A DNA stretch of 64,000 bases from Pilasporangium apinafurcum. Its lineage: Eukaryota > Oomycota > Peronosporomycetes > Pythiales > Pythiaceae. The position numbers and the translations under genes are program-made. Positions 21,449 to 46,908 of this stretch are shown here, piece by piece. The stretch's first letter is position 1. Each line of letters begins with the position of its first letter. The notes beneath the pieces are model-generated. The model was not told the DNA's origin. It ran no database searches and saw only the letters and a list, made by a program, of their open reading frames with translations. The DNA lies in assembly GCA_001600495.1 (NCBI GenBank), contig BCKE01000017.1, forward strand, positions 494,142-558,141. Reading direction: 5' to 3'.

Positions 21449-21895
21449 TTAGCACGACAGTACTGGCGCTTCCCTTGCTTCGGTTCTTACGCGCTCTGCA
21501 ACCTTGCGATATTTGAGTGCCTTCTTCGCGAGGAAAGCATTTGTACTACTGGAAGCAGATCGGTCTTCGGCCTCTGCGATTAGTTGCTGCACTTTAGCTT
21601 GCGTGTGTAGGCGGAAAGCCTCGTTTTGGAAATTGATCCCATTGGAAGAGACCGCGAAATACTGGTGCTTTGGAGTCCACGATCCAAAGCAGGAGACACT
21701 GCGCTTGTTTGGCATCTTTCGAGGGATGGCAAGCAGCGAGTCATCCTTGGACTGTAATGCAGTACCCGATTGTGCACAAGTGGTCGTCAAATGCAAATCC
21801 ATAGGAGCAGCTTTGTCCGTACGAAGCATAAGTGGGTGGAGCGGAGAGGTAATAGAAGTATGTGGGAGCACTTGGTAGGCAGCTGGACGACACAT
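21449..21895 (-). CDS. MCRP small-protein family, copy A
   Basis: 148 residues; function unknown. Starts MCRPAAYQVLPHTSI. The N-terminal half is variable. The conserved core is at residues about 85-130: GINFQNEAFRLHTQAKVQQL, then SSSTNAFLAKKALKYRK. The end is EAPVLSC. The core looks like an amphipathic helix, a Ser/Asn turn and a basic helix. There is no signal peptide and no membrane segment. Longest of the copies and most like copy B at 22973. Single exon; the ATG is chosen because the MCRP start recurs in copies G, H and J. Confidence 0.7.
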   Translation of the reverse strand: MCRPAAYQVLPHTSITSPLHPLMLRTDKAAPMDLHLTTTCAQSGTALQSKDDSLLAIPRKMPNKRSVSCFGSWTPKHQYFAVSSNGINFQNEAFRLHTQAKVQQLIAEAEDRSASSSTNAFLAKKALKYRKVAERVRTEAREAPVLSC

Positions 21896-22972
21896 TCTTG
21901 ATGGATGGCTTTGTGGTTCTTTCGAGGTAAGTTTGGAAATGCAGCGATGACAATCGCATCCATTAAAGGCGTTCCTTTGTCCAACGGTACATTCTCAGTC
22001 TTGATGAGTCTCTTCTATTCAGTTCCGTCTTGTTTACCGGATGGAAAAATATGAGAGACTCATCAAGGCTAAAAATAAGAAAAACAATACGTTACAGAGC
22101 TGTTACTCCTAGTGTTAAAAATCGTGGCACAAGTGACAACTTGAGGCTATTTCTTCCGAGGAACCACCAGTTTAAGCGACGTGCAGGGCGAATGGGATCA
22201 TAGTTGCTCGTGCTATTTAAATAGATTTTCGCCTATTTTTCATCAGAGGGTCAGACTGATCGAATATTCTGCGTAGTTGAGAAAGAGTCTATGATGGAGT
22301 AGGGGTATGAAACCCCGGAACAGTAGAGGCAGTTGTAAATTTGCTCATGCACTGAAAAAGTTCAATAAGAATTAGCTCGTAGATCTTGTTTTATATAAGC
22401 CGAAAAGAGAAGGTATACTATAGAAAAAAAGTCGTCTGCAGATCAGCCCGCAGTCAGCTTTGTTGAGTGTGTTGAAGTTCCAGTCACATGTGATCTGTTC
22501 TTTAGTGATTGTTATGTAAATTATGACGAAACATAATACAAAGGGTGTATGTAAACCAATTACACGTGTCGTTTCAATGTTCGATCAATAGTACACCGAA
22601 AGAGTTGGAGCACAAAAATCTCGGTAGCAAATTCCGGGATTACTTTACAATTGATGTGGATTGACTGCTACCAAATTGTTATGAGATTTTAATTCGTAAT
22701 ATGCGCCGATGCATTTACAAAACAATTTGTCAGTATTGCCCACCTGCCTGGAAAGAAGCGATAATAGACTGCAGGCTTGTGTATGTTCGCGCAGAACCAT
22801 CCCTTTGCCTTTTTGCCCACAATAGTTGGCATTCTACAAACTCTCTTCGTTAACAAAGGCAAGAGATAACAGAAACATTGCGTTCTTAATAAATAGATGA
22901 TATATTACAAAATTTCAAAAAATCCAGCAATGCTGTCCGAAGGTTGTCTACAACATGTACGAGTGCCCATAT
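21896..22972. other. Spacer between family copies A and B
   Basis: About 1.08 kb without a credible gene or recognised transposon part. It includes a copy of the general AT-rich filler of the island; presumably it also holds the promoter of copy A just after 21895. Confidence 0.35.
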
Positions 22973-23353
22973 TTAGCAAGACGCAACGGCGATGGTAGCA
23001 TTGCCTCGCTCGACGACCTTACGAAATTTAAGTGCTTTCTTTGCAAGGATGGCATTGGCACTGGAGCTGGATTCACTTGAAGCAGTGGCAATCAATTGTT
23101 GCACCTTCGCTTGGGTCTGCAAGCGGAAGGTCTTGTCTTTAAATGAAACACCACGTGAAGATACCACAAAGCGTTGATTGGCGAATGCACGGGGCTCAAT
23201 ACAAGAGACGCTTCTTTGAATTGGCTCAATAATTGGCAACTTCAGCTTCTCATCAATGGGAAGCATTGGAGGCTTGGTGGTGATTAGCATGAGTGGAGGA
23301 ATATTGCTAGCCTCAGAGTGCGCAAAAACTTGGCTACTAGCTAGTCTGCACAT
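22973..23353 (-). CDS. MCRP small-protein family, copy B
   Basis: 126 residues; function unknown. Starts MCRLASSQVFAHSEA. The core GVSFKDKTFRLQTQAKVQQL is followed by SSSSANAILAKKALKFRK, ending TIAVASC. Tandem with copy A in the same orientation, 1.1 kb apart. The identical TQAKVQQLIA segments point to a recent shared ancestor. It shares VSCxxxRxFANQRF-like spacing with A before the core. Confidence 0.7.
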   Translation of the reverse strand: MCRLASSQVFAHSEASNIPPLMLITTKPPMLPIDEKLKLPIIEPIQRSVSCIEPRAFANQRFVVSSRGVSFKDKTFRLQTQAKVQQLIATASSESSSSANAILAKKALKFRKVVERGNATIAVASC

Positions 23354-25097
23354 GTTGTTATTGTATGCTTTGCTGATGATACTGATGCTTCAAAACGTGT
23401 AAATTGAGGAGTGAGCTTCTCTATGCAACCGAGAACTCTTCTTCCCTCAGTCGACTCCTCGCGTGTGCAGCTTTTTTGCGACCAGAAGAACAGAACAACC
23501 AGAAATGACGAGTTTATATTTATCTTTCATCTTTGCTTTCTCTGGTAAAGCAGGGCGGTCTCAGTCATCCTTGATGTGTTACAGCCTCCTATCCAGACCC
23601 TCGACATTTCTGGGTGAAACGGTTTCAACGGACAAACCTTGTTGGCAAAACTGGGCAATAGCTTTCGAATAAAGACTTTCAAAGCATCCACTGATCATCC
23701 TTCTACTTCTGGTGCTGCACCTGCTTCAAGGTCTCTTACTGAAAAATCGCCTGACGGATGTCAAAAATCTAGAAGATCGACTGATCGAGGAGTAACTGCG
23801 TAATGATGAACGAGTCCAAACGGCCATGACGGCTAACGCAAATGTTGCGAACTTTTGAAGAGAGAAGCGCCGCAGCTCGACTAACCACTCGATATTATGT
23901 AGTGTAGCGGGCTATTGAATGCGAAACACTCCACTGAAACCCCCTCGCCATGAACATTTTGTGCCACGTACTTGCACATTAGATGGTTGCAATCGTTGAT
24001 TAGGCAGTTTCTATAAACGTCATTTGTTCGGGTCAACCATATTGGTTGGGTGTGGATCTTTTTTAAAGTCTCTGAAAATGTAGAGCAGTATTTTCTGTTG
24101 TTGTGCGCTCGCTCTAAAATGACTTGAACAGTACGCAAGGCCAAAAGACTCCAAATACCGTTGTATTACCCAGATACCTTCTGATATATTGCAGCATGAA
24201 GAGGTACGATCGCCGAGTTTGCTAATCAAAACAAGAGTATCCTCGTCTCAGCGTACAAATATCCAGTATTCGAGTACGCACCCTCAGTCTACTGACCAGC
24301 AATCTAGTCTTTCGTATGTGCCGTTATTTGATGGGTCATGCTGTAGCACAGCGATAGATCTACGATCCAAATTGTTTTGTCGTTAATTGACACTTCATGC
24401 TGAAGAAAAATACATCTGGATGTTGTTATCGAGATTAAAACAAATCGGCACGAGACATTGCTTGCTGCATGTTTTATTGATCGAAGATATCATCATCTCT
24501 CTCCTGTATTCTCTGTATAATGTGATCGCATTGCGAGATATGCCAGTTTATTGAGTGACTAACCAACATAAGTCTGTCGACCATAGAGTATCAACTCATG
24601 CACCAGACCAAATAACAATAGTCGACCATAGGGCTTAGTGGCTCTGTATCCCAATTCAAGACCTTCTATATGATTTGCTAAAAAAAGAGAAAATAATAGT
24701 TGTGTATGTATAGATTCCGTGCGACGCTTACGATCTCACCCATGAGAAGTTGGAGTGTTAAAAGTACTGATCGCTTTCTCAGAGCCCAGGGTTCATCCTA
24801 ACTCATCAGGGATGACTAGGTATGCGGAAAACGATATCAGCGGCCCTTACTTAGGAATTCTTTTAATGACGAAAAACTCCAGAATAAGCTGCAATTTCTT
24901 CCCAAGGATGAATGAACAACTTGTTCGTTAGTAAAACGGAATGACTGACAGATTCTCTTGTTAATATGGTAGTGAACTCAAGAGCATCGGAGCGACTTGC
25001 ACAAGTATGCGCTGAGTTGGATGCGCAATGCTTTGTCGAGGTGACTACACTTTTGTCACACGATTTAGAGCCACTGCAGCAGTAGACATCACTTTTT
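23354..25097. other. Spacer with repeat debris
   Basis: 1.7 kb. Around 23565 a motif CCTTGATGTGTTA recurs in similar form near 29838 and 45263. Around 24787 GGGTTCATCCTAACTCATCA resembles 38350. Minus frames at 23881-24229 are short and unrecognised. I see no intact gene. Confidence 0.4.
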
Positions 25098-25462
25098 TTA
25101 AAATGAACAGATCCACATCGATAAAACCAGAAACTGGTTTCCAATTGTTCGCAATGAACTCTTTTCAGTGCCATTCTTCTTTTCAAGAACGGATGCGAAG
25201 CGATGGTAGTGCATGGAAAATCAAAGCAATTGTCCAGAAAGCGTGGTGCAATAGTATCGGTGCGAAAGGAAGGCAAAGATCACACTAGAAACATCTTTCT
25301 CAAGAATGAACACTTATTCATCGCATTCAAGTGTCAGAGCCGCCTACTCCGCGATTATCTAGTCTTAGCTAGCTTTTGCTATTGAATCGGACCCAAAGAA
25401 AAAACAGGAAGTCCTCCCTGAGATACTCGTACTTTGGTATTTCATATGATCTCTTCGAGGTT
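25098..25462 (+). pseudogene. IS607/Fanzor-related transposon relic, copy 2
   Basis: Inverted near-duplicate of 9358-9725; identity by eye is roughly 90 percent. Plus-strand frames read FAMNSFQCHSSFQERM and then, shifted, TRNIFLKNEHLFIAFKC. The second part matches the RuvC-III-like NAARNIFFKNEHL of the 47.8-kb relic. Broken frames, no intact product. It lies 230 bp from family copy C. Confidence 0.6.
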
Positions 25463-25691
25463 AGGGATGAAGAAATGCAAGATGGCTTCGTTCTTCAAGA
25501 TGCCCAAACACGTGATAAGACAGTTAAGCCACTTCCACAGCATGTTCGCTCTTATGACGACAAAGTGACAATAAGAGATGTGCCACATGTTTTAAATATC
25601 TGTCATAGACGAGAAAGATGAGCTTGTGAAAGCTGTTATTCAACTTGCTAAAATATTTCATGTACCTACTACGATTACTGTCTAGAGTGTG

Positions 25692-26045
25692 CTAGCATGG
25701 GGTTCCATGTGCGTATGCCCTCGCTCTTCCCATGGCTTTGCGAAACGTCAATGCTTTCTTGGCAATGACTGCATTTGCAATGGTTGCAGTGGATCCCTCC
25801 GCTGTCGCGATGAGCCGGAGCACTTTTGCTTGTATTTCTCTTTGAAAATTTGGGTCGTGGAAAGTGATTCCGCTGGACGAAAGTGTGTAGTGCTGGTAGC
25901 AATGTGGCTTCATAGCAGAACGTTTACGCACCGATGTGATGGACGAGTATAAGGGTCGAGAAGCCGCCTTATCAGTATCGAGGAGAAGTGTGGAGACGTT
26001 GCATTTCAGGTTTCCAACCATTTGGTATGACGCAAGACAGTACAT
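25692..26045 (-). CDS. MCRP small-protein family, copy C
   Basis: 117 residues; function unknown. Starts MYCLASYQMVGN, so Cys is at position 3 here rather than 2. Core: GITFHDPNFQREIQAKVLRL, then IANAVIAKKALTFRK. The end is HGTPC. It is more diverged than A and B. Its upstream sequence (about 26180-26300) resembles the upstream sequence of copy E (about 30870-30985): both contain GAAGGCAAG, CCTCAGA and GTAAGCAC blocks in the same order. The two loci were therefore probably duplicated together with their 5' regions. Confidence 0.65.
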   Translation of the reverse strand: MYCLASYQMVGNLKCNVSTLLLDTDKAASRPLYSSITSVRKRSAMKPHCYQHYTLSSSGITFHDPNFQREIQAKVLRLIATAEGSTATIANAVIAKKALTFRKAMGRARAYAHGTPC

Positions 26046-27110
26046 CTATGGTGCGTTATGAGTCTTTGCTTCGTTGCGACCTGTTTGCGGTTAATTTAAT
26101 AATGGAGGCAGCTACCTTCTAAATCCATGAATGTAGAATAGTGCAGGTACACGTATCACTGAAATGAACTGACAGTCTGAGCGAGAAGGCAAGCAACGAA
26201 GAGCGTTTGATGGAAGTTTTATTTTGGACTTTCCTCAGAAGTCGGGAGACGTGATATTATGGCTGATCCTTTCTTGTGGGTTGTAAGCACTTGTTTAGTC
26301 TCCGGATGACTTTGTTATTCATGAGAAACGATATCAAAACTTACAAATATCTCCTATCACTTTGTGCTGTACCACCTTCAGTTCCACATTCCCATTTTCC
26401 ACAATCATATTGCACTGTTTTTCTTACTGCAATCAGGCTTTACCGTCCTGCCAACCTGAAAGTTCTACCATCGTGATTTCATCTTAAAAGATAAGTAGCA
26501 ATGGCTCCACGTTTCATACACGTGATGGTAACATCCGAAAAGCATATGAACTTCCTACGCGGTAATTAAGAAGACCCAAGTGGAACCATGAAATATGAGT
26601 TGAATGTCTTGAATCTGACAGCAAATATCGAACTAAGCATAATACATTAAACTCAAAAAATATCTCAGCAACCCTATATGTACGATGCGTACTACCTAAG
26701 TGCGCATGATAATTTGTCTCCCCAGATCAATCGATGCTAGAGAAGCGGACGGTTTTCTTTGCTACCAATCTGAAAACAGCACCGTTATCGTCCGTATCCT
26801 AATCACTCAACATTGTTCACGCCCATAACGAGTATCCAGTGGGATACAATATAACCCCTACCTTGGCTCTTCGCTACGGTTGTATGACCCAGACCATATC
26901 TGGAAACGTTATATCGCCATTCTATTCAACTTTATAAATGAAGAGCGTTGCTAATAGCACTATACCCATACAAGTAGAATAGTAGTCTTCTTGCCCAGCT
27001 CCACGGTCCCTACCTAGAGGAGTTCATTAGCGCGTGGCGTCCAAAGTGATTTCTCCCGGTCGCATGGTCGTGTCTAAATCACTTGGGTGTAAATGGGAAA
27101 GCATTGAGCA

Positions 27111-27298
27111 GTTGCAGTTTCAAAGTAGCTAATTTCTCTGTGTGCAAATGGAATAGCGAGAGCATTAGTAGTTGTGACAACCATACAATTCTTCCATACA
27201 ACCAGTTGCAGTTTCAGAGTAGCTGATTTCTCTGTGTTCAAGTGCGATGACGCGAGCATCAACAGTCGTGGCAATCCTACAGTTCCTCCATACCACCC
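27111..27298. repeat. Two-unit tandem repeat, period 94 bp
   Basis: Two imperfect direct copies begin GTTGCAGTTTCAAAGTAGC at 27111 and GTTGCAGTTTCAGAGTAGC at 27205. Each runs through AATTTCTCTGTG/GATTTCTCTGTG to TTC(T/C)TCCATAC. No coding role is apparent. The flanks (26046-27110 and 27299-27891) hold no recognisable gene. Confidence 0.6.
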
Positions 27299-27891: not shown

Positions 27892-28152
27892 ATGTTCAGA
27901 TCGCATCATACTTTCCTGAATATGCTTTACTGTGAACAACGGTATGTCATCACTCCCCATGGAATCATCTTCCAAGACAAGGCCTTCCAGTTATATACGC
28001 ACAAAAAGTTCCAGCAATTGATCGAATTGGCTGAGAATCCATCAAGCTCCCATGTGAACGGCATCATCGCTAGAAAAGTGCTTAAGTATCGTAAGAAAAT
28101 CCGCTTAGAAGCCTCGACTAACATCAACGACTTTCACTTCTGTTCCTCGTAA
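27892..28152 (+). CDS. MCRP small-protein family, copy D (short form)
   Basis: 86 residues; function unknown. It lacks the MCRP N-terminal half and begins MFRSHHTFLNMLYCEQ. It keeps the core: HGIIFQDKAFQLYTHKKFQQ, then PSSSHVNGIIARKVLKYRKK. With copy F (34.2 kb) it forms a subgroup sharing the TPHGI/SPHGI and AENPSSSHVN segments. It may be N-terminally truncated, or its true first exon may be unrecognised. Coding status is less secure than for A, G, H and J. Confidence 0.5.
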   Translation: MFRSHHTFLNMLYCEQRYVITPHGIIFQDKAFQLYTHKKFQQLIELAENPSSSHVNGIIARKVLKYRKKIRLEASTNINDFHFCSS

Positions 28153-30386: not shown

Positions 30387-30734
30387 CTAAAATGAGACTT
30401 CTGTCTGCATGGCTTCGGTGTGTGTTTTCTTTGTAACCTTGCGAAACTTCAGTGCTTTCTTCGCAAGGACTGCATTCGCGCTAGTACCCTCCGCAGTAGC
30501 GACCAATTGCTGCAATTTTGTTTCCATTTGTCTTCGAAAGTCTTTATCTTGAAAGGCGATACCACTGGCTAAAGGTGTATAGTATTGTGGATTGATAACG
30601 GATGATCTGCAAGTCGATGCTGGGGTGAAGCGCATGATGTTGCAGATTGTGAGAGTCTTCTCTGGTGAGAGAAAAAATGAGTGAGGGTTGGTTACAGCAC
30701 CTTCCATCACTTGACACGATGCGAGACGGCACAT
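30387..30734 (-). CDS. MCRP small-protein family, copy E
   Basis: 115 residues if started at the inner Met (MCRLASCQVMEG); ten more codons are open upstream, to 30764. The inner start is chosen because it recreates the family N-terminus. Function unknown. Core: GIAFQDKDFRRQMETKLQQL, then ANAVLAKKALKFRK. End: MQTEVSF, lacking the final SC of A, B and G. The 5' region is related to that of copy C. Confidence 0.65.
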   Translation of the reverse strand: MCRLASCQVMEGAVTNPHSFFLSPEKTLTICNIMRFTPASTCRSSVINPQYYTPLASGIAFQDKDFRRQMETKLQQLVATAEGTSANAVLAKKALKFRKVTKKTHTEAMQTEVSF

Positions 30735-32283: not shown

Positions 32284-32342
32284 ACCTTTATTCCCAGGTG
32301 TTCTGTACCGCGCGTGATAGAGAACACGTGGAGAATAAAGGT
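32284..32342. repeat. Palindromic element with ACCTTTATTC ends (copy 1)
   Basis: Inverted arms at 32284-32304 and 32321-32342 (ACCTTTATTC...GGTGTTCT paired with AGAACACGTGG...GAATAAAGGT) around a 16-bp loop. It sits just beyond the stop of the Fanzor relic at 32389. Related palindromes lie at 33835, 42725 and, as one half, 48247. Confidence 0.65.
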
Positions 32343-32388
32343 ACACTCATCCGTTTCCGGAATCATAGCAGTGAGATCGTTTATCACC

Positions 32389-33443
32389 TCAGTTTTTGAT
32401 TTCGGGTACCAATTCATTCTCTTTCCTCGTGAACGCCTCGAGTCTCCTCTTTTTCTTCACTTGGTCGATGAATANTCTCAAAATGTTGATTGCGGCGNTG
32501 ATGTCACGGTCCCACAATGTGCGATGGCATTCACTATTTTTGCAGTGTCNCACACCATAAAGACTGGCACTGACAACTTTTCCATCAAGGACGAACCCCT
32601 TCATCTTCTTGTGACAAGCACAACACAGCTTGCTCATCCTGAACTCGTCCACATCAACAACACGACACCTGGAACCAATTTTTTTCCATAGGGTCGTTAT
32701 GAGAACAGCAATGTTGCCTTTAGCTGAGCTTGTGAAACTTGTGTTTCCATACGCGAGCATCTGGCCGAATAAGCTATACTGAGTTTGGGTGCTTGCACGG
32801 ACTAGCAGTGAAACAGCACTCTTGATTATCTTGCCTTGGTGCCTTTCAAAATAGTCACTGTTGTGAAGACGTATCTGCAAGTGCATCCACTTACACAACC
32901 GGAAGTAGAACGTCAATCGGTTGCTGACTTGAAAATTCTGTCTTGCGTGCTGAGCAATCATAACCAACATCTGACTCATATAGGATTGCTTCTCTGTCGG
33001 TTCATAAACTGAAGGATGCTGGACCATGTAAATATTCCGACTGGTCTTCAAATCAGAATGGATCTCTCCGCTGCCGTCCAAGTTGGCTATTGCAGATGAG
33101 CATCGATTGAAGAAGTTATTATCCAATGGAGGAAGTTCTTCGCCAGCTTCCAATAATCACAGAACATGGACGGATGCCACCATAGATGTCTCACATGCTA
33201 TTCTTGAACAAAGTCGCACAGCCTCATCAATCTTTTCCGCCATTTCTTTGTCTTTGCAAAACTTTCGCCACCCAGTCTTCACAGTGGTGTATACGCTTTG
33301 CTTTTGTCAAACTTTCCGTTCCGCAAAATCTGGGTGGGCTCTGCGCTTTTTAGTGGTGTTCTCTTTAGTACCGTCGCTCGTTGATATCATTTTATCACAA
33401 TGTTCAAAAACAAGGACACCTCGTAGTTGGTTTGATTTTTTCG
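32389..33443 (-). pseudogene. Fanzor (eukaryotic TnpB-like) nuclease relic
   Basis: TnpB-like RNA-guided nuclease family of IS607-type and other eukaryotic transposons. The minus frame reads from MISTSDGTKENTTKKRRAHP at about 33443, with two in-frame TGA stops, into an open stretch from 33153. The C-terminus is diagnostic: MSKLCCACHKKMKG plus HCKNSECHRTLWDRDI form the four-cysteine zinc ribbon and RuvC-III aspartate, followed by AAINIL. The RuvC-I GIDPG and RuvC-II region is missing: about 250 residues are absent between the helical part and the ribbon. It also contains three N bases. It is flanked by palindromes at 32284 and 33835, which may be element ends. Confidence 0.8.
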
Positions 33444-34167: not shown

Positions 34168-34428
34168 GTGCTGGCACTGCAATATCATACGATCCTCATG
34201 CGCAAGTCCTCACAAATGACGGGATCAGATCGACGTATATCAGGCGTATTATACGTCAAGCAACGTTATACCATTTCTCCGCATGGAATCGTGTTCCAAG
34301 ACAAGGTATTTACTTTGTACACCCACAACAGAGGCCATGAATTGGCCGCATTAGCTGAGAATCCGTCGAGCTCCCATGTGAATGTAACCCTCGCCAGAAA
34401 AGCGCGCAAATGCCGGAAGAAGACCTGA
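34168..34428 (+). pseudogene. MCRP small-protein family, copy F (truncated)
   Basis: 86 codons in which only the C-terminal part resembles the family: YTISPHGIVFQDKVFTLYTH, then AENPSSSHVNVTLARKARKC, stopping early after RKKT. The family N-terminus is absent, the helix is altered (RGHELAALAEN), and the basic tail has lost its pattern. Closest to copy D. It is probably a decaying copy, though still open. Confidence 0.5.
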
Positions 34429-35280: not shown

Positions 35281-36110
35281 GCGTCACAAAATGTATGGTG
35301 CATTTGCGCTGACAATCGTTCGAATAGTGTTAAAACACAGCTCTACAGGCTTTAACTGTGGAGAATACGGAGGAAGATAAAGCATATTCATGTGTTTCTC
35401 TTGGACAGTCTGAGAAATTGTGGACAGGCCCATACTTTGCAAACTAGCTACTGCTTTATGCGTTGCAGCATTGTCCAATATAACATTGGTTTCATTTGAT
35501 AACCCACTCAAAAAAGAAGGAAGGCGGACCGAGTTCACACTTCCTGAAAACAAGAATCAATTAACGCCATCGGGTGATGCTGCTAAGATCAATGAATGTA
35601 AATTTTCTCGTCTTCCTGGTTTTCTCACAATAGTTCTCTGACCTTTCATGCTCCATGCATACTTTCGGCTGNNATTGAGAAAGAATGCTGCTTCATCCAA
35701 CGCTATCCACTTTTTCCCTGTATGTTTGGACAATGATGACAAAAAATGATGTTGTTGTGTGCTACAGGCTTCTTGATAAGCAATGGAAGCCTTTTTGTAC
35801 GTGATTTTATGTTCTAGCAAGATGTGCAGGACCGTTCGTAGAGAGACATCAACGTCATATGCATTTTTCACGAAAATAATTCCGTCAGCAAGCATGCTTC
35901 TATTACGACTGAGAAAAAAATTGACGAGTTGGTTACGCTGGTTGCCATTCAAATTTCACAGTTGAGATCGATTGAGAGGTCATGCTGCAAACTTAACATC
36001 ATTGAGTCAATGTTGAACGGTTCGTTTGCTTATATCAAGAATCTCAGCTATCTTGATGAGGGTGAATCCTTGGGTCCGAAGATGAAAAAAATTTGTCGTT
36101 CGACAATTGA
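35281..36110 (-). pseudogene. IS630/Tc1-type DDE transposase relic
   Basis: Cut-and-paste transposase remains, in three pieces on the minus strand. First comes a helix-turn-helix piece (IKIAEILDISKRTVQH, about 36070-36010, with stops). Then 35952-35557 has QEACSTQQHHFLSSLSKHTG and the first catalytic Asp region WIALDEAAFFLN. After a frame shift, 35553-35284 has ILDNAATHKAVASLQ (second Asp) and YLPPYSPQLKPVELCFNTI (third acidic residue). The order and the PYSPxLxPVE motif are typical of the DDE_3 family. Stops, the frame break and two N bases make it non-functional as assembled. Confidence 0.8.
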
Positions 36111-37739
36111 TTTCATGGCTATATATTTACAGATAAAAAACGTGACATTCTCACTGCCGAATGTAATAACGAATAGAACCAACAATGAAAGCAATAGACA
36201 CAGGATGCATTTCTTTACAGCAGTCGTGACTGTTGATGCAGCAGCAAAGGCACAAATAACGCAATCTATTCAACGATGTGAGAGTTAATTCCCGCGAGTA
36301 TACTTTCGTGTACTTCCAACCGTTACACCCTGTTTTTGGCAGGATCATCATTGCTATTTGCGGCTCATCTCCTCCCCTAGCTCATATTTCGTTCTTTGCG
36401 CCACGCGTCACCATAGTCACCACTAAGTGAATACATATACAGTAGCTCCAGCACAGGTGATTAAAAACCAAGAAGTGCGAGGAAATGCAGATGAAACCTA
36501 ATGGAATGTCGTGCTGTCTTTGTAATGGTGGAAACGATCTCATACTTTGCCTGTCCCGCTAGTTGTAACGCCACGAAGGGCTCCATAGAACTCGAATAGT
36601 AGAAAATTGTAAACAATTTTCTGCATGATTGATGTATGTAGCAAAGGCAAGCGAAATCAAATACATTCGCGATCATTCTCTCTACATGTCTGATCTCTAT
36701 CCTCACTTTATCTATTTCTCTGTTGTATCCTCTATCGTTGATGTACCGACAGTAAGTCGCAGTGTCGGCCCACATAGAGCTGCAGATAGTCGTTTTGACA
36801 GTTTTGCTCACCCAAGCGGCGCAGCGTTGATATATATTTAATGCCACAATGCCACAAAAATGCGGTATAGCAAAAACTACCATGCTTCATTCAGTTCATG
36901 CATTGATTCTCCATAAGTGAATATTTAAACATAGAAGACTTACTTTGGTGGTAGCGAATCAATTGATATACTTCTTCCATTCAGAAAAATCTGTGCTTCG
37001 AAAGCCAATTCCAACAAATGAAATGTTTATCCTGTGGAGTATCAACCAAAGAGGATCTGAAAACGAGGGTACGTCTAAATGTAAGGTTACACCGTTAATA
37101 ATCTCATTCCGGGATAAATTTGCAGGTTATCGAAGATTGGACTTGCATATAGTAGCAAATTTCATCACGGCTTAGGACTAGTATCATATACATCGGTTAC
37201 AGAGAATGTTGACGAATTTTTTGGAGGATTCGCTTTTCTGATGCGTCATTATTCTCGGTAATAATCTGATGAAACGACAAGTAACAATCTGCTTGAAAAA
37301 ACGGATAGAAGTACATGAGAACCCTTGTTGTGTCGCGCTGAGATAGCAATCGTTGCGCTCTAATAGCTCACCAAATAGAACGAAGGCGAACAGGGTTTTG
37401 AATTGTGTGACATTGTACCTATCCCCACCCTTCGCGTGTTTTTGCAATTTACTTGTCACATTTAAAAGTAGCATGCACGCTTTGTCCCTTGTGCTTATTC
37501 CCACACATAATTACTTTTTTTGCGAATAAATCTTTTCCATCCCTTTATCTTCTTCTTACCTCTTAATTCTCCAGCATTTATTGTCCAAATCACACTACTA
37601 CACGAAAAAAGACCAATTGGGGAACAATGTACCGCTTTGCTCAATGGCAAATGCTTCCATGTACTGTTCAACCGCTGGCCACAAAAATCTATGTAGCAAA
37701 AGTAAAACAAACAACACTACCAATAGCTACCTTCAAACA
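36111..37739. other. Gene-poor stretch with unrecognised frames
   Basis: 1.6 kb. Minus frames at 36461-36883 (140 codons) and 37184-37504 (106 codons) are the longest; neither shows a motif I know. At 36140, GTGACATTCTCACTGCCGA slightly resembles the end of the GGGCACCGAGAATG MITE. Confidence 0.35.
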
Positions 37740-37749
37740 ACTCAATTCG

Positions 37750-37990
37750 TCTCCAACAGTATGTAGTATATTGCTTCATGGCGAGATGCTTCGGCAATAA
37801 ACGACAATGAATGTACAGAGGATTGTTCACTACGGCATCAAGTCCCAAAAGCTCCATTGTCAATATTTTTCTCACCGCAAAAGCACTTTGATGCCGAAAA
37901 AAAGTTGCTGTTGTCATGAAGCGGCCAAGAATCACGTCCATATATTTTACTGCAACTATAGAATTGTCAATTGTGTCGCTAATCATGTGT
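37750..37990 (+). pseudogene. MCRP small-protein family, copy K (broken, previously hidden)
   Basis: No long open frame, but nucleotides align by eye to copy H. The reading GEMLRQ-stop-TTMNVQRIVHYG lines up with DEVFQRQVHTNLQNLIIT. After a one-base shift, SSPKSSIVNIFLTAKAL-stop-CRKKV lines up with SPKSSSVNALLAKKALRYRKKI. There are two stops and one frameshift. It shows that a family copy once stood between F and G. Confidence 0.6.
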
Positions 37991-38645
37991 ATTGTAGATG
38001 TAAAATAAATTAATAAACTATTTAATGAACAGAAATTTCTTTTTTACTCATTCCTCGCCACACGTTTGAACACCATTATTCAATCGACAGAGCTCATCCA
38101 ATATATAACTACTTCGATATAGGTATTAAAAGTTTTATTTGTCACCTCTATTTCTCCGTGACGAAGCTGGAGGTATGAGAGCATATTGTATAGATTTGGT
38201 CGCCGATCAGATGAAGGCGAAAATATAAATGCCGTTTTCTCAGGCACAATCCCATGCCATCACTGATGAGTTATGCCACTAAGCAGCTGTATGACACATC
38301 GACGATGAGCTATCTTGCGAGCGAGTCTTTTAACAGCTGGAGGAGCGTCAGGGTTCATTCTAACCCCTGATCATTTCTCCGTCATCGTGCTCTTGAAATC
38401 TCAACATTCATTGAAACATACTGATTGGACAAATACCCGATACGCAAATTGAATCAGCCAACCAAATGCTTTGAGATAGTATCTGTGGTTGCTTAGACTA
38501 TTGCTGGCAACTAGGTTATTCCAACTCGCTTCGCGAGTTGCGCCTACCAACTGGCTACACCTAGAATACGGGCTGTATCGTGCGAGGAGGTTCAAGTCCG
38601 AAGACCCCAAGCTCACCCTTTTTTGCGCTTCTACGACTTACTTGA

Positions 38646-39002
38646 TTATCGTTGCAAGTACTCTGGTCTTGCTCGATTGTTGAAAAGTTCTATTGTCACG
38701 CGCATAATATTCAGCGAAGCGTTCACGTCGCGATCCCAAAACGTCTTGCATTCACTGGATTCATAGTGCAAAACGGATCGAGATTCAATTGTGCCATCGG
38801 GAACGCCGTTGACCATTTTCGGGAAGACTACCTTCGAAAGTTCAGCGTGACAGTGGAAACATCGCTTACTTGTACGAAACTCGTCGACGGAACGAACGGT
38901 AGTGCGCTTTGCCAGTTCCTTCTTGAGCACTTCGACGCCATGGTGGCGAATTGTCGAATGACAGAGCAGTAAAAAAAATCCCCATACTGATTGCAAAGAC
39001 AC
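38646..39002 (-). pseudogene. Fanzor nuclease C-terminal relic
   Basis: A 118-codon minus frame ends with the TnpB/Fanzor zinc ribbon and RuvC-III: VDEFRTSKRCFHCHAEL, VLHYESSECKTFWDRDVNAS, then LNIMRV. The ribbon's third cysteine position reads Tyr (LHYESSEC), so zinc binding would be impaired. A shifted frame at 38828-39271 extends it upstream without a RuvC-I motif. Only the last fifth of the protein remains. Confidence 0.75.
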
Positions 39003-39573
39003 ACTTGCAGTTGGTTATAGTGAAAATAAGATTTCGAGGTAATTCGTTTGTCAGGTTTTCTAGTCAGTGTGACAGGTTTGGTCAGACAGACAAAATGGAA
39101 TCTCATACATTTTCCGCACGGATGGACAGCTTGCGAAAATAAGATGAAAGGGAGATGATCAAATGATGCATATACTACCGTACTCATGAGATCTCTGCAT
39201 CGTCCATAGACTAGTTCAGTGCTTACTTGTATTAGCACTAATAAAATAGGCTTCAGTGGATTCCCAAGCACAATTTAAAAATCGGGTACTGTATTTCGAT
39301 ACATTTTTGGCTCAAAATTTGTCTATGCTTATACTTCAAGGTCCTCAATCTTACCGCGATGTTATATTTTGCGTAATTGTAACTTGGCTTGGGTGTATTG
39401 AACAAGGTGAAGTCTCGGAACAAAGATAATAGGGAGGTTGTGCAGCTGTCACATAACAGTGAAAAATTACAGTAAGCAGTAAAAGGGGTAGGTTATGGTT
39501 ACTATTGTGATTTTTCAATAAGGAAAGTTACATTAGCGTCCTGTCTATAGTAACCCCAAATGACAACACACGG

Positions 39574-39889
39574 ATGGATGAAAAGAAGGAAAAACACGAC
39601 CACAACANCCACATCGTTCCAAAGAATATGTCAAGCAATGACAGCGCTGCCAATCCCGTTGCCTCTACAAGCGAGCAGCAAAGCGTTCCAGGAACTGGCA
39701 ACGGGGCAACAAAGAATAGGAAGAGAGCATTTCGTTTCATGCCATCATCTGATGTAATGCTCCTTAAAGAAGCGATCAAACACACACCTTGGGCGGCAGC
39801 GCATGGAGAAACGTTGACAGCGTGGACTCATGTTGCCAGGGAGCTTCACATGGAGGTTCCTTCTTGCACTGCAGACGGCAAAGCGTGTC
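39574..39889 (+). CDS. Harbinger accessory Myb/SANT-like protein (partial, runs into gap)
   Basis: Harbinger elements usually carry a Myb-like DNA-binding partner that brings the transposase to the nucleus and to DNA. Seen: a Ser/Asn/Thr-rich leader, then MLLKEAIKHTPWAAAHGETL and TAWTHVARELHMEVPSCTAD. This is the W-x-h pattern of the SANT-like domain in such proteins. The frame enters the N run at 39890. One N occurs near codon 12. The start may instead be the Met at about 39628. Confidence 0.7.
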
Positions 39890-40589
39890 NNNNNNNNNNN
39901 NNNNNNNNNNNNNNNNNNNNNNNNNNNNNNNNNNNNNNNNNNNNNNNNNNNNNNNNNNNNNNNNNNNNNNNNNNNNNNNNNNNNNNNNNNNNNNNNNNNN
40001 NNNNNNNNNNNNNNNNNNNNNNNNNNNNNNNNNNNNNNNNNNNNNNNNNNNNNNNNNNNNNNNNNNNNNNNNNNNNNNNNNNNNNNNNNNNNNNNNNNNN
40101 NNNNNNNNNNNNNNNNNNNNNNNNNNNNNNNNNNNNNNNNNNNNNNNNNNNNNNNNNNNNNNNNNNNNNNNNNNNNNNNNNNNNNNNNNNNNNNNNNNNN
40201 NNNNNNNNNNNNNNNNNNNNNNNNNNNNNNNNNNNNNNNNNNNNNNNNNNNNNNNNNNNNNNNNNNNNNNNNNNNNNNNNNNNNNNNNNNNNNNNNNNNN
40301 NNNNNNNNNNNNNNNNNNNNNNNNNNNNNNNNNNNNNNNNNNNNNNNNNNNNNNNNNNNNNNNNNNNNNNNNNNNNNNNNNNNNNNNNNNNNNNNNNNNN
40401 NNNNNNNNNNNNNNNNNNNNNNNNNNNNNNNNNNNNNNNNNNNNNNNNNNNNNNNNNNNNNNNNNNNNNNNNNNNNNNNNNNNNNNNNNNNNNNNNNNNN
40501 NNNNNNNNNNNNNNNNNNNNNNNNNNNNNNNNNNNNNNNNNNNNNNNNNNNNNNNNNNNNNNNNNNNNNNNNNNNNNNNNNNNNNNNNN
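39890..40589. other. Assembly gap (700 Ns)
   Basis: Exactly 700 N bases inside the Harbinger element. The round number suggests an estimated or fixed gap size. Any frame crossing it is not evidence for coding. Confidence 0.99.
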
Positions 40590-40941
40590 ACAAATGCTGC
40601 AATACATGGTTGCATATCGTCGATAGTGTTGTGCGGTCACGCCCGAAGAGGCTCTCGAGATCGACAAGTCGAGTAGGATAAGCCATCCGACGAAGGAAAA
40701 CACAAAGAGCCTCGAACGCGGTAATACGGTAGCGCTGCTTTGTAATGAGTGGATCTGAGAGACGAAATTGTTCAACCAGCTTGAAAATTTGGGGTTTATT
40801 GAACCTAAACATTGTTGTCCACATGTATGATGAGGGTGGCAAGTTGAAATCGAATCTGTGGCTCCTCGGACGGCAGCTTCTTCCCAAAACGATCGCTACC
40901 GCCGCCAACTCCTCGTCCTCGCTTGAGCTATCACTCTCCAT
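40590..40941 (-). CDS. Harbinger transposase (HARBI1/DDE_Tnp_4-like), N-terminal part
   Basis: A minus frame of 117 codons from the ATG at 40941 runs into the gap. Seen: MWTTMFRFNKPQIFKLVEQF, then KQRYRITAFEALCVFLRRMA and LVDLESLFGRDRTTLSTICN. This is the conserved N-terminal helix-turn-helix region of PIF/Harbinger transposases. The catalytic DDE part would lie in the gap. Whether it is intact cannot be judged. Confidence 0.85.
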
Positions 40942-41582
40942 GCTCCTCTATCGTCTTGTTCTCTTTGAAAATGACTGTAGCACAATTCCTATTGTGAAAT
41001 ACTAAACCTCTTTAAACCGATATTGACTATTGGTATTTTTCACTGTTATGTGACAGCTGCACAACCTCCCTAATGATACGATTTTTCCCAGGACAAAACG
41101 ATACGTACATATGAGAAGAGTCAATTGAGAGCCTTCTGTCGGAAAGTCGCTGTAGCAATTGCTTTTTGGGGATGGAATAGCTGACAATCTGTTGCATGTT
41201 AACCCTTATTTCGCCGTGAATGCAGCTTAGCTATCGAATGAAAACGGCCATTAACAGTTTTCTCGGAATGTCAATGAGAACAATAGGGTGTAAACAGTAG
41301 TTGAGTCACGTGCAAGTCCTACCCCTTCGAGCCTGATGAATGAAGCTTAGTGACGGTAGGGTTTGAGAACGTTTTGATGCGCGTGTTTATGCGATTTACT
41401 CGTCTTATTTAACAATATACGGGTACATCTTTATCACCCACAAGTATTTCAAGATGCCGTTACGATTCTTCGACGAGGAACCGTCTGAATGTTTATCGAT
41501 TCGCTTTTTCACATTGAAGGTTTAAAATGACTTCTCATTTCCCAAGATTCTCTGAACAAATCGCATTACGAAAAAAAAATCA

Positions 41583-41942
41583 ATGTGCCGCCCAGCAGAA
41601 TATCTAATGTCGCAAAGTGCTCTTATCCAGCCTGCGATGAATGGCAACTGTGAAATATTTGCCCACCAAGAGAAACAAGTCATTCTCACGCTGAAGCAAT
41701 GTACTTTGCTTACAAATACACGAAGCATGTCGCTCATGGATGACGCATTTCGCCGTCAAGCGCAAGCAAACCTACAGCAATTGATCGCAACGGCAATGAA
41801 TCCAAACTGTTCCAGCGTCAACGCATTGTTGGCTAAAAAAGCACTTCGATACCGGAACAAGTTCGCAGTTGACTCAGAGCGACAAAGCATGGCACGTATG
41901 GATGCAGCTGGCACCATGGAAGTACCAGTTATGTCCTGTTAG
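41583..41942 (+). CDS. MCRP small-protein family, copy G
   Basis: 119 residues; function unknown. Starts MCRPAEYLMSQSALI. Core: MDDAFRRQAQANLQQLIATA, then CSSVNALLAKKALRYRNK. End: TMEVPVMSC. Forms a clear subgroup with H and J (same C-terminal TMEV-V-S and the same NALLAKKALRYR). The upstream region has TGAGTCAC at 41302, as in H, and an A-rich run directly before the ATG. Soluble, no signal peptide. Confidence 0.78.
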   Translation: MCRPAEYLMSQSALIQPAMNGNCEIFAHQEKQVILTLKQCTLLTNTRSMSLMDDAFRRQAQANLQQLIATAMNPNCSSVNALLAKKALRYRNKFAVDSERQSMARMDAAGTMEVPVMSC

Positions 41943-42724
41943 TCAGCGTAATAGTTACCAACAATGTAGCTGTGATAAAGTATTATTTATTGAGCACAAT
42001 TTTTTTGCATTTGACTGAGTTTTCGTTGAGCATTTGCGTAGCCGATTCTTATCACTCCATATAAGCACAGTACACTCGAACAATAAGACGATGGGACCGT
42101 CCATATACATAAGACCAAGCGCGACATACAAAGTATAGCAGCATGATAAGGAAAGATCTTCATCCATATCGGTCTGCATGGTTGTAGCGGCGTATGTCTT
42201 TGAGAAAAAGTTGGCTACGACTTCGTTTACGAACAAAGGGGCATGGTAGCCGAAGCCATTACAGTTAAATTGCCACTGATACCTTCCTGGTAGTAAATGA
42301 GCATGACGAAAATGGATCGATGTCGCTGAGTTAAACGATTAGATTACACACTTTATATTAGAATATCGAGTTACGTAGCTTTGCTTCCGAGAAATCACAT
42401 GCTGAGCGACTGTAAATATAGCCCACTGTTGCGTCAGATCGAACACAATCTCAAGCCATTCATTATGTGCTCTGTCGCATCACTCTTCGGAGATATGACT
42501 AGCAGGCAGTCATGAGAACAGCCTTGGGTCAACCGATCTTTTCACAGCTAGAGAAGTGTACATTTGCTCTTGTTAGTCCATTTTAGCTCACTTACAATCC
42601 AGACATCCTTGACAATGCGGAAATGGGGTGGTAAGCATTCTTAGTCCACAAAAATTTAAGTGATGATTGGTTAAAAAAATGAATTTCTACTCGTTTGACC
42701 AATCGTAATTCACAAAAATGTATC

Positions 42725-42790
42725 TTTTAACCTTTATTCCCCCACATCATTTGTACAACGCGTTGAACAAGTGAGGAATAAAGGCTAAAA
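42725..42790. repeat. Palindromic element with TTTTAACCTTTATTCC ends (copy 3)
   Basis: Left arm TTTTAACCTTTATTCC, right arm GGAATAAAGGCTAAAA, inner TTTGTACAACGCGTTGAACAA. About 66 bp in all, nearly the same interior as copy 2 at 33835. It stands alone here, 800 bp downstream of family copy G and with no Fanzor coding sequence beside it. That suggests a non-autonomous miniature element. Confidence 0.72.
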
Positions 42791-43303
42791 AGGCATAGAC
42801 ACACAACATAACATGAACCAAGCCAAAGAAAGCACAGTGTTTTGCGAGTGATGAGTTATCTTGGTAGTGCATTTCCGTCATAGGCGGAATAAAGATTGAT
42901 ATTCAACAGACCCTTTGAGTATAGTAACCCTGTATTTCGTCACTTTTGACCGCACGATCGAACGAAACGTCTGCAACGGTCTTTTCGTCTTGGCATGAAG
43001 GAGCGAAAAAATAGATTGCAAGCCACAGTTGAGTCACTGTTTACCCTTATCCACTGTACCTCGCACAACTTACCAGCTGGATCGCAAAGTCCAAAGAGAC
43101 TTCAACTACGCGTGTCTTTGTTCTCTGCTCTTCAGATTTTGACAATAGCACGCGCTTCTTTGTCGCTTCCGCTTTTTCCGGTATGCCGTTACAGTTCTTT
43201 TAAGGGGAGGCTCTACTATCTGACTGTTTTTGATTTGTAAGTCGAATAACTATTCATTCTCTAAAATTCTCCAACGAAATAACAAGCAAACCACAAAAAA
43301 AGA

Positions 43304-43660
43304 ATGTGCCGCCCCATTGAAAGTCAAGTGCTCCCCAGTGCTCTTCTTCCACTCATGATGACAAACACAACAAAAGACCTCACACAACAAAAGGCATCAG
43401 CCGCTTCACACAGAGACTTGGATTCACTCCCAGCAGTACGAGGCGTGTCGTTCCAAGACGAAGTGTTTCAACGCCAAGTGCATACCAATTTGCAAAACTT
43501 GATCATCACGGCTACAAGCCCCAAGAGTTCCAGTGTCAATGCATTGCTTGCCAAGAAAGCGCTCCGGTACCGCAAGAAAATCGCGGCTGCCTCAGAGCAA
43601 ACACATATGCCATGCATGAATTTTTCGAGGACGATGGAAGTGCCAGTCCTATCTTATTGA
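43304..43660 (+). CDS. MCRP small-protein family, copy H
   Basis: 118 residues; function unknown. Starts MCRPIESQVLPSALLPL. Core: GVSFQDEVFQRQVHTNLQNL, then KSSSVNALLAKKALRYRKK. End: TMEVPVLSY. It is the closest relative of J; the first 15 residues are almost identical. Upstream blocks shared with J and the broken copy I include GCGTGTCTTTGTT near 43110 and a TTTCGTCAC block near 42938. TGAGTCAC at 43030 is shared with G. The shared 5' sequence suggests common expression. Confidence 0.8.
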   Translation: MCRPIESQVLPSALLPLMMTNTTKDLTQQKASAASHRDLDSLPAVRGVSFQDEVFQRQVHTNLQNLIITATSPKSSSVNALLAKKALRYRKKIAAASEQTHMPCMNFSRTMEVPVLSY

Positions 43661-44785
43661 TAGAAGTTGATGAGTCGTTTATTTATTAGTATCAGATAGC
43701 TCCACCCAAACGCAATTATCTATTAGTTGAATGAAAGCAAATGTGTTATGAGAGATTCATTCCGATCTTTGAATACCTGCATCTCATGCTATTGGTAATT
43801 CGTTCTTCCATCCTTTCGAGTAGATCCATGAGCAATCGGGTCAGATGGCACCTGCCTCAAAACACGACTAAAATCTCAAGGACACTAGTACATTTTACCA
43901 GCCTTTTCTGTAAGATTTTGGGTGGTAATAGTAAGTCGTGAGGTTACCTATGTGTTTTCACGAGGTTCCACGAAGAGAATGTCTCAGATTGGCTGTTGCT
44001 ATACACCAGGTGCTGTGATTATTTACTTAAAGATGTCTTGATCAAATTTGTTCCATAGAGATCTAGGTACTTGATAGCTGAATTGGCTTTACCGCTAACA
44101 GATATGAGATCGTAAAGCACATATGGTACACATAATGACTTTAATCAACTTTCTTGATCACAAAAAAGTTGACCTCGGTATGCTTTGACCAGACTTGTCA
44201 GTTTTGAATGACGCGGACATACACACACATCGGAACGACCGGAACCAACCGAGCAACGAGAGCATAAGAGATATAGGCCGCCAATACCTTGGCTTTCATT
44301 GCCAACCAGATATTGATCTATGGTCCTGATTATGCTCAACATGGGTAATCCCTGTTTTGGTCACCCTTGGTTTCAGCACTTGACAAAATGGCTACAAAAG
44401 ATTACTTTGCGAAGAAGGAGAGGAAAAGTTATCTTTGAACTGCTGTTGAGCTATTTTCCTCAACTCTTATCAAGTAAATTTGGCAGAGTGGTGGCTACTT
44501 TCTAACGCGGGACTGTGAAAGTCGTTTTAGGGATGGGTGTTTTTGCTCGTTCTCGGCTTATTTGATAAAGCAGACTGTGCGTCTTTGTCACTTCGACTTT
44601 TTTTCAGCATATCATTGCAATTCCTGTGAAATTCGCTATCTTGTCCCGTTGGCATCAAAATCTCGGACAAGATCATCCACTCTTCAGCTCCTGGTTCCCA
44701 CACTACCAGAAAGTATGCGCAATTAGGGATCCTAGCGACTAACGCCGATAAGTAAAACCCAACAGCGCGTGGTTTTTGTTCTAGG

Positions 44786-44980
44786 ACGAACAGTTTCGAC
44801 ACCAAGCACAGACCAGCATGCAGAAGTTGATCATCACTGTGGCAAGCCCATCAAGCTCCGCTCAGTGCACTGCTCACCAAAAAAAACACTTCGATATTGC
44901 AACAAAGCTACCACTACCTTAGACCGAATTCATATGAGATAGCTGAGCGCAATGGAAGTGCCAATTATGTCCTGTCAATG
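44786..44980 (+). pseudogene. MCRP small-protein family, copy I (broken)
   Basis: Family core without a start or intact frame. DEQFRHQAQTSMQKLIITVA is followed by a shift at SPSSSAQ. The equivalent of NALLAKKALRYRKK is then readable in another frame, and AMEVPIMSC appears near 44950. Upstream (44560-44640) keeps the GCGTCTTTGTCACTTCGAC block of H and J. A dead tandem duplicate between H and J. Confidence 0.65.
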
Positions 44981-46560
44981 ATATAGTTAACTTATAGCTC
45001 CAAGGAAGCCGCGGTAAAGCGATATATAAACGTTTTGAACATATTCACTGTCATGACGTTCTTGCATTCTACACAGTTAATTATCTGAAGACTACGTTGC
45101 TGATAATTATATATAGGATCAGCGTGTGAATGGTTGGTGAGGCATTATCTTGAGCAATACCCGCCCTATAACATTGGATCTCACTAAATTGAAGTAAGCC
45201 CAACCCTTGACGGAAAATACAAAAATAAATACGAATTCATGAGAAAGCATGCAGTCGCAATCATCTTTGATGTGTTATATGCTCCAAGATGCTGACGATC
45301 CGTATAGCCAACGGCTCCTAGTCGTTTAAACATAATAGCAGCTGGAAGAATTGCGTTTGCTCTTTTATGATCCTAGGCAATGTTAAGATTACCTGACTGA
45401 TTATTTGATATTATAAATCCGTATTAGGTGATGATTGGATAAATATCTCCTATGTCCAATTGCCCAATTGCATCCGTCGAAAACGCATCTTTCATAGGTA
45501 CGTTTTCGTCAAAGTAGCTATGACTTTTCTCTAATACAGCAACCAGGTCGAGTGCTCGTTAGATATCAATTAATTAAAGGTCTGGAATGAATTTCAGCAA
45601 GTACTGATAGCGCGGAATCCCAGTGTTTTGAGCACGAATCCACTCATATCAACTACCGCATGAGAGTTTAGAGAAAATCTCGTGCCCTTTTTGCATTAGA
45701 ATGATGGGCTTCTCAGTGGAGGGTTAACTCGATTGTTCTTAGACAATACTACGTCTTTGAAAATTGGATTGGTTTTGTTTGCAATGAATATGAAGATATA
45801 ATGCTCATAGGGTATCCGTAACAACTTGGATCAATTGGATTTTGCGTGCTTGATATTTGGATCGCAGATAAATTGACCATACTATGGTTTATCTAACATG
45901 CCACTCGCTAGTGAGATGGAGATACGTGCACACATAGAATGAGACGAAACCGAGGAAACGCATACAGCATGAAGAGCGAGCATCGTCATTACGCTGTATT
46001 TCGTCGCGAACGAGATAAACAAATGTTAATACGTAACGATCTTTCGCGGAGGCAATCCCTTGTTTCGTCACCCCTTTGCCCCAAGATCGAAACCGATATA
46101 AACGGTCTTCTGCGCTAGAAGAGAATAACAATTATAGAATGTAAGCTGCTGTCGAGTCACTGCAGTCTCTCATTCTCTCAAACGGCTATCAAATAAATTT
46201 GGCAGAAAATCCGGAGCAATCAAAGTAATCTTCCTATATAATAGAGACAAAACAACAGATCGAGCCAATTCCATATATTAAATATTTATCTTTCTATTGT
46301 ATAAAGTTTGCTATTAGTCGCCTAAGTTGGCAACTAGTCGGTCACATTTAAAAGTAAATCGACTAGCTAGCAACTATCCAGTTAAAGACTCACCCCGAAC
46401 CTCCAAGTCTGCGTGTCTTTGTTTTTTCTCGTCTTATTTTACAAGTCGGCATACAGTTACAGTTCCTTGAGTTCATCATTCGCTGTCGCTTAAGCCTCAT
46501 TCTCCAAATTTCTCTTTTTCAAGCACACGACAACCCAAGCAATATAAAACTAAGATACAA
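44981..46560. other. Spacer and 5' region of copy J
   Basis: 1.6 kb. A CATCTTTGATGTGTTA motif lies at 45263. 46060-46170 carries CCCTTGTTTCGTCAC, AAACGGTCTT and CGAGTCAC blocks that are also upstream of H. GCGTGTCTTTGTT is at 46411. No gene was seen other than the promoter of J. Confidence 0.5.
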
Positions 46561-46908
46561 ATGTGTCGCCCAATTGAATGCCAAGTGCTCCCAAGTGCTC
46601 TCTTGTCTCTGAAAGTCAATATCAGCAAAGAGCCATTCGAGATGATTACCACCACTGCTCTACGCAGCTACCCAGTGCCACCAACGCATGGTATCTCTCT
46701 ACAAGACGAGGCATTTCAACATCAAGCGCATGCTAATCTGCAAAATTTGATCATCACAGCGGCCAGTCCTAAGAGCTCCGCGATCAACGCATTACTTGCC
46801 AAGAAAGCGCTTCGATACCGCAAGAAAATCCCTACTTCCTCAAAGCAAATTCGCATGTCATCAATGCATCTTGCAAGCACGATGGAAGTGTCAGTCATGT
46901 CCTCTTAA
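46561..46908 (+). CDS. MCRP small-protein family, copy J
   Basis: 115 residues; function unknown. Starts MCRPIECQVLPSALLSL. Core: GISLQDEAFQHQAHANLQNL, then KSSAINALLAKKALRYRKK. End: TMEVSVMSS. It lacks the final Cys of G. A 5' region of at least 500 bp is related to that of copy H. It is the last family member, 340 bp before the Fanzor/IS607 relic. Confidence 0.8.
   Translation: MCRPIECQVLPSALLSLKVNISKEPFEMITTTALRSYPVPPTHGISLQDEAFQHQAHANLQNLIITAASPKSSAINALLAKKALRYRKKIPTSSKQIRMSSMHLASTMEVSVMSS

What the first reader, a model, noticed from the sequence alone, without database searches (positions are those of the whole stretch)
21449..46908. An undescribed small-protein family, 11 copies in one 25-kb island
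Sequence shows eleven related loci: A 21449, B 22973, C 25692, D 27892, E 30387, F 34168, K 37750, G 41583, H 43304, I 44786 and J 46561. Products are about 85-150 residues with no signal peptide. The shared core is F-Q-D-x-x-F, an amphipathic helix (QxxxxLQxLIxxA), a Ser/Asn turn and a basic AKKALRYRKK helix. Most start MC-R-(P/L) and several end in V(M/L)SC. Members left of about 31 kb are mostly on -, members to the right on +. I recognise no domain. This is the best candidate for a new system: a lineage-specific family of small, probably intracellular, possibly nucleic-acid- or membrane-binding proteins.
Basis: partly seen in the sequence, partly recalled or inferred. Interest (0 to 1): 0.85.

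Follow-up and report, generated by a model that had tools for sequence, protein, structure and literature searches.

The report
Oomycete basic-hairpin small-protein gene cluster
A Pythium-like water mould carries nine intact and two decayed copies of a small protein, made of a loose front half and a tight positively charged two-helix hairpin, from a family that relatives such as Phytophthora also carry as unnamed proteins and whose role I found no description of.

Summary
Nine copies (A-H, J) are intact and under purifying selection; K and I are decayed remnants. The family has no Pfam match and no clear structural relative, but it is not private to this island. The same genome has at least six more copies. 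Two protein searches return 66 homologues; the 52 with a named organism are all from Phytophthora, Nothophytophthora, downy mildews, Globisporangium and Pythium. None is from Albugo or the Saprolegniales, whose proteins are in that database. The tree shows a long type ending in a VDWCK tail, a Phytophthora-type clade, a Phytophthora Met-Cys clade, and the window copies, which probably amplified separately (71/75). The predicted structure is a disordered N-terminal half plus one confident helical hairpin with a strongly basic second helix. Best reading: small intracellular adaptor or regulatory proteins whose hairpin binds an acidic partner (nucleic acid or protein). Bolder reading, not excluded: the Met-Cys start makes some copies oxygen/NO-sensing N-degron proteins. 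The genome has two PCO/ADO-type dioxygenase loci, but no arginyltransferase was found.

The parts
21449..21895 (-). copy A, intact ORF, 148 aa, MCRP start, VLSC end
22973..23353 (-). copy B, intact ORF, 126 aa, MCRL start, VASC end; core-promoter-like match 14/15 at -63 (recalled consensus)
25692..26045 (-). copy C, intact ORF, 117 aa, MYCL start, TPC end
27892..28152 (+). copy D, intact ORF, 86 aa, short N-terminus without Met-Cys
   Evidence: no ATG-TGY within 1.5 kb upstream
30387..30734 (-). copy E, intact ORF, 115 aa, MCRL start
34198..34428 (+). copy F, intact ORF, 76 aa, nearest to D; promoter-like match 12/15 at -123
37628..37985 (+). copy K, decayed pseudogene (altered start region, frame change, in-frame stop in core)
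41583..41942 (+). copy G, intact ORF, 119 aa, MCRP start, VMSC end; promoter-like match 12/15 at -50
43304..43660 (+). copy H, intact ORF, 118 aa, MCRP start, VLSY end; structure predicted (helices 53-71 and 77-99)
44786..44982 (+). copy I, decayed 5'-truncated pseudogene
46561..46908 (+). copy J, intact ORF, 115 aa, MCRP start, VMSS end; promoter-like match 13/15 at -66

Best explanation
A tandemly amplified family of small, probably intracellular proteins, so far found only in the Peronosporales/Pythiales. Each has a disordered, faster-evolving N-terminal half and a conserved C-terminal helical hairpin (core G-I-x-F-Q-D...L-x-x-L-I-x-x-A, a Ser/Asn turn, then N-A-L-L-A-K-K-A-L-R-Y-R-K). Shown: homology, copy number, purifying selection on the core, confident hairpin prediction. 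Likely from the tree: separate expansion in this lineage and in Phytophthora. Inferred: one face of helix 2 (Leu82, Ala86, Tyr89 and neighbours in H) packs on helix 1, leaving a stripe of Lys/Arg (84, 85, 88, 91, 92) that binds an acidic partner, most likely nucleic acid or an acidic protein surface. The N-terminal half carries short linear signals (RSxS-type possible phosphosites in many Phytophthora-type and long-type members; Met-Cys start and terminal Cys in the window and Phytophthora Met-Cys types) that would control each paralogue's binding, place or lifetime. The cluster would then be a set of diverging, differently regulated adaptor/regulator paralogues.
For: Family and copy number. 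Homologues returned only from these oomycetes: while a WD40/AIP1 protein of Albugo, Saprolegnia, Achlya, Thraustotheca and Aphanomyces is in the same database. Core conserved in 59 aligned members, Ala83, Lys85 and Arg90 invariant. Long type and window type are one superfamily: hhalign probability 98.8, E 9.5e-17 over 51 columns. Hairpin with block pLDDT 90-96 over residues 51-90 of copy H; a long-type copy also gives two helices, the second at lower confidence. Helix-2 segment net charge +4 to +7 in all nine copies. Purifying selection strongest in the core. R[ST]xS in 59 of 81 members against a shuffled mean of 14.9, maximum 22 of 200 shuffles (rows are related). Tree: window copies together (71/75), Phytophthora-type clade 100/100, Phytophthora Met-Cys clade 100/99.
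Confidence: 0.42

Rival explanations
1. Oxygen/NO-sensing Cys N-degron proteins. Met aminopeptidase removes Met1, exposing Cys2; a PCO/ADO-type thiol dioxygenase oxidises it when O2 is available and the protein is destroyed, so the Met-Cys paralogues accumulate in hypoxia (for example in flooded soil).
For: Met-Cys start in 6 of 9 intact window copies and in 6 of 6 tree rows of the Phytophthora Met-Cys clade (P0001, P0098-P0102) while much of the rest of the N-terminus differs. Two PCO_ADO loci in the genome, C5 (125.6 bits) and C34 (exon pieces of 31.9 and 25.8 bits, cut-off 27), the second with an HNHPGM stretch that resembles the family's metal site as recalled. UBR-box matches are present, 5 over the cut-off, one of them with stops inside.
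Against: No arginyltransferase: ATE_C 0 matches, ATE_N only a sub-threshold match (19.5 bits, cut-off 27) with two stops. Copies C, D, F and own C17:374k lack Cys2. PCO/ADO enzymes also have other substrates (recalled).
Confidence: 0.12
2. Acylated or redox-linked small proteins: Cys2 and the C-terminal Cys are used for palmitoylation, disulphide pairing or a PDZ-like C-terminal contact, and the basic hairpin docks on acidic phospholipid.
For: 4 of 9 window copies and 6 of 66 homologues (P0097-P0102, all of the Met-Cys type) end in Cys. Basic helix 2.
Against: A terminal Cys is absent in D, E, F, H and J and in 60 of 66 homologues; no lipidation consensus was tested.
Confidence: 0.1
3. Unconventionally secreted host-directed effectors, which would explain the fast N-terminus and repeated tandem birth.
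For: Tandem birth-and-death with two pseudogenes; looser N-terminal half (pN/pS 0.53-0.77 outside the core).
Against: No leader visible by eye; the strongest conservation is in a basic core; long-type family members also occur in Pythium oligandrum and P. insidiosum, a mycoparasite and an animal pathogen (lifestyles recalled).
Confidence: 0.05
4. Remnant of a mobile element or non-functional ORF array.
For: Transposon-like fragments lie between the copies; two copies are decayed.
Against: Purifying selection, homologues across several genera, no match to a transposon protein.
Confidence: 0.02

Closest known systems
Phytophthora/Peronospora hypothetical proteins (e.g. PITG_05713 and PITG_05707 of P. 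infestans, PHYSODRAFT_516104 and 286987 of P. sojae)
   Same: Same core and similar length; near-consecutive locus-tag numbers suggest clusters too
   Different: Mostly start with RRRSLSE-type stretches and carry RSKSESFICTAQG before the core instead of Met-Cys; separate clade at 100/100
Phytophthora/Nothophytophthora MCNM proteins (P0001, P0098-P0102)
   Same: Met-Cys start, core, Cys at or next to the C-terminus
   Different: Group with the genome's C17:374k copy (92/74) rather than inside the window cluster
Pythium/Globisporangium long type ending GVDVNDPxFDVSKFLGVDWCK
   Same: Same hairpin; hhalign E 9.5e-17
   Different: Extra conserved C-terminal tail; no Met-Cys start in 11 of the 12 tree rows (P0047 has one)
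Cys N-degron substrates (plant ERF-VII, RGS4/5; recalled)
   Same: Met-Cys start
   Different: Sequence similarity beyond that was not tested; arginyltransferase not found here

Membership tests
Oomycete basic-hairpin family (this family) | Core FQD...LIxxA...NALLAKKALRYRK | tested here: met
   9 of 9 intact window copies align over the core
Oomycete basic-hairpin family (this family) | Two-helix hairpin | tested here: met
   Prediction for copy H and, less confidently in helix 2, for the C86:48k long-type copy; not experimental; the other eight window copies were not folded
Any Pfam-A family | Match over the curated cut-off | tested here: not met
   0 of 9 window copies; best E 0.014 among the 59 members; the 16 homologues new to the set were not scanned (their precomputed Pfam column is empty)
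Solved structures | Sequence or fold relative in the PDB | tested here: inconclusive
Cys/Arg N-degron substrates | Met-Cys start | tested here: met
   6 of 9 intact copies; 3 of 9 lack it
Cys/Arg N-degron substrates | Thiol dioxygenase in the genome | tested here: met
   PF07847 at C5 and C34
Cys/Arg N-degron substrates | Arginyltransferase ATE1 in the genome | tested here: not met
   PF04377 0 matches; PF04376 sub-threshold only; six-frame, intron-blind search of a possibly incomplete assembly
Cys/Arg N-degron substrates | O2-dependent turnover | not testable with these tools
   needs cells
Secreted effector families | N-terminal signal peptide | not tested
   no predictor available; none visible by eye
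Transposon-encoded protein | Transposase or accessory domain | tested here: not met
   no Pfam match

The most novel reading that the evidence does not exclude
A stramenopile oxygen/NO-sensing switch: the Met-Cys paralogues are substrates of the oomycete PCO/ADO enzymes and are destroyed through an oxidised N-terminal Cys without ATE1, linking a basic-hairpin regulator family to soil flooding. This would be N-degron O2 sensing that skips arginylation.
Probability: 0.08. Interest if true: 0.82.

Novelty: new member of a known kind. Interest (0 to 1): 0.42.

Why it matters
It puts a boundary, an architecture and a testable function on a family that sits unnamed in oomycete genomes. Repeated tandem amplification of a protein without a visible secretion leader, with a constrained hairpin and a looser N-terminus, stands out in a group where attention goes to secreted effectors (general knowledge). 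The Met-Cys start makes one specific question, whether oomycetes sense oxygen through N-terminal cysteine, directly testable.

Tried and rejected
Albugo as source: the WD40/AIP1 gene next to the cluster is 58% identical to A. candida and 57% to A. laibachii, but 76-84% to the environmental, Pythium, Globisporangium and Lagenidium rows that head the list and 78%, 73% and 63% to three Phytophthora rows. The organism is therefore Pythium-like; the species was not identified (literature listings, gave nothing useful).

Pfam, PDB sequence and fold searches gave only chance-level matches. The single-TPR-like resemblance (PF18833, E about 0.1, copies D and J) was dropped as too weak. The 'viral' structure library and the long-type model were not searched.

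A shared promoter motif over ten copies: the best 10-mer had an enrichment ratio of 6.5; 12 random control sets gave 4.0-9.0, one of 12 exceeding 6.5, and the controls tried fewer candidates against a smaller background, so this is suggestive at most. The right-hand copies G, H, J, K and I do share upstream blocks. The recalled oomycete core-promoter consensus scored well for B, J, G and F (12-14 of 15), not for A, C, D, E and H (10-11 of 15). Of 12 control start sites of other ORFs in the window, one (1095) scored 12 and 11 scored 9-10, so the consensus is not general here and the evidence is weak.

Upstream exon with Met-Cys for D and F: no ATG-TGY within 1.5 kb.

Literature: searches (locus tags, 0 papers each; motif strings, 0 papers; topic, 5 papers listed) showed no description of the family; (N-degron and oomycetes) listed nothing on an oomycete Cys N-degron. 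Only listings and abstract beginnings were seen; no paper was opened; supplements were not available.

Full report
What is there. The island at 21.4-46.9 kb holds nine intact ORFs of one family, each readable as a single exon, and two decayed copies. Six of nine start Met-Cys-Arg; A, B and G end in Ser-Cys and C in Pro-Cys. No further copy was found in the 64 kb.

Genome context. The window lies at C17:494142-558141 of a 36.47-Mb, 136-contig genome. Six more members lie outside it: C17:374k, C17:567k (about 9 kb beyond the window's right end), C86 three times and C53 once. Searches by single proteins score only the best candidates, so these are lower bounds. To the right of the island are an SMC-type gene (exon 54485-55015, SMC_N E 1.4e-33) and a WD40 gene of the AIP1/WDR1 type, whose best relatives are Pythium-like rather than Albugo.

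Relatives. Two protein searches returned 50 and 18 proteins, 66 distinct. Fifty-two have a named organism, all Peronosporales/Pythiales; 14 are environmental without one. Albugo and Saprolegniales proteins are in the database but none was returned; the search depends on short shared words, so distant members there are not excluded. Near-consecutive locus-tag numbers (PITG_05707 and 05713; V7S43_012651, 012652 and 012666; DVH05_010383, 010398 and 010403) suggest clusters in Phytophthora too. The listed longest-contig lengths agree between family member and AIP1 in P. citrophthora (569,863; P0041 and P0064) and P. oligandrum (955,744; P0089/P0093 and P0057), so they probably share a contig; closeness was not shown.

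Tree. With 55 rows (116 columns; the 15 intact own copies and 40 of the 66 homologues), the long VDWCK type separates from the rest (99/94). On the other side are the Phytophthora-type clade (100/100), the Phytophthora Met-Cys clade (100/99) with own C17:374k (92/74), and the nine window copies together (71/75, 72% of bootstrap trees). So the window cluster and the Phytophthora-type cluster were probably amplified separately. 28 of 52 inner branches are weak, and two own rows, C17:567k and C53, are long branches.

Selection. NG86 core dN/dS is computable for 18 of 36 window pairs and runs from 0.08 to 0.58, lowest in close pairs (H/J 0.08, G/J 0.12, D/F 0.18); synonymous sites are saturated in the other 18. 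Bootstrapped pN/pS, which overstates dN/dS when synonymous sites saturate, is 0.16-0.43 in the core of 8 pairs chosen of 36 and 0.53-0.77 outside it, where three of the eight pairs reach 1 in 3% or more of resamples. The hairpin is kept and the N-terminus is looser.

Structure. AlphaFold2 on the 59-row alignment gives copy H a disordered N-terminal half and two helices, 53-71 and 77-99, at block pLDDT 90-96 for residues 51-90; mean 68.5, pTM 0.42. The long-type copy gives helices 35-54 and 61-78 plus short ones in its tail, the second helix at block pLDDT about 75-77 (mean 73.3, pTM 0.33). No PDB match stands out. Helix 2 is basic in all nine copies. The assignment of a packing face and a basic face is my helical-wheel inference.

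Signals. R[ST]xS occurs in 59 of 81 members (200 shuffles, mean 14.9, maximum 22) but in only 3 of 9 window copies. Met-Cys start: 7 of 66 homologues, six of them the Met-Cys clade and one (P0047) of the long type; P0097 has the MCNM stretch internally, after a longer annotated start. The genome holds two PCO/ADO-type dioxygenase loci and UBR boxes, but no ATE1 was found with either of its Pfam domains in an intron-blind search. The N-degron reading is therefore open but incomplete.

Verdict. It is not an island-private novelty but a local expansion of an oomycete family, spread over the Peronosporales/Pythiales, that remains unnamed in what I could search. The most likely role is that of basic-hairpin intracellular adaptors or regulators; the exact ligand is unknown.

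Noticed in passing
window 32389-33027 -: ORF with a Cas12f1-like TNB (TnpB/Fanzor-type) domain match, E 2e-5, 25.1 bits against a Pfam cut-off of 26.3; probably a fragment of a eukaryotic TnpB-like element.
   Followed up: partly
window 39574-40941: Two opposed ORFs run across a 700-N gap; the minus-strand one looks like a PIF/Harbinger-type transposase and the plus-strand one like its Myb-like partner (by eye, recalled; no Pfam match).
   Followed up: partly
window 35557-35895 -: Weak DDE_3 transposase fragment (E 0.005, below the Pfam cut-off).
   Followed up: partly
window 59926-63240 -: Long ORF of 1104 aa with no Pfam family over cut-off; possibly a mobile-element or orphan protein.
   Followed up: no
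window 27109-27296: A 94-bp unit repeated once head to tail at 80% identity.
   Followed up: no
L010 (C86) and L030 (C53): Family members on C86 and C53 both lie near a zinc-type quinone oxidoreductase-like ORF (by eye), as if the block had been duplicated.
   Followed up: no
G000 C5:661149 and C34:148002: Two PCO/ADO-type thiol dioxygenase loci in a genome where no ATE1 domain over its cut-off was found.
   Followed up: partly
window 37420-46572, upstream of G, H, I, J, K: Shared upstream blocks (GTGTxTTTGC-like, CTCGTCTTATTT-like, GCCGTTACAGTTCTT-like, CTCATTCTCCAA-like) although whole-ORF dS between G, H and J is 1.2-1.6; possible common regulation.
   Followed up: partly
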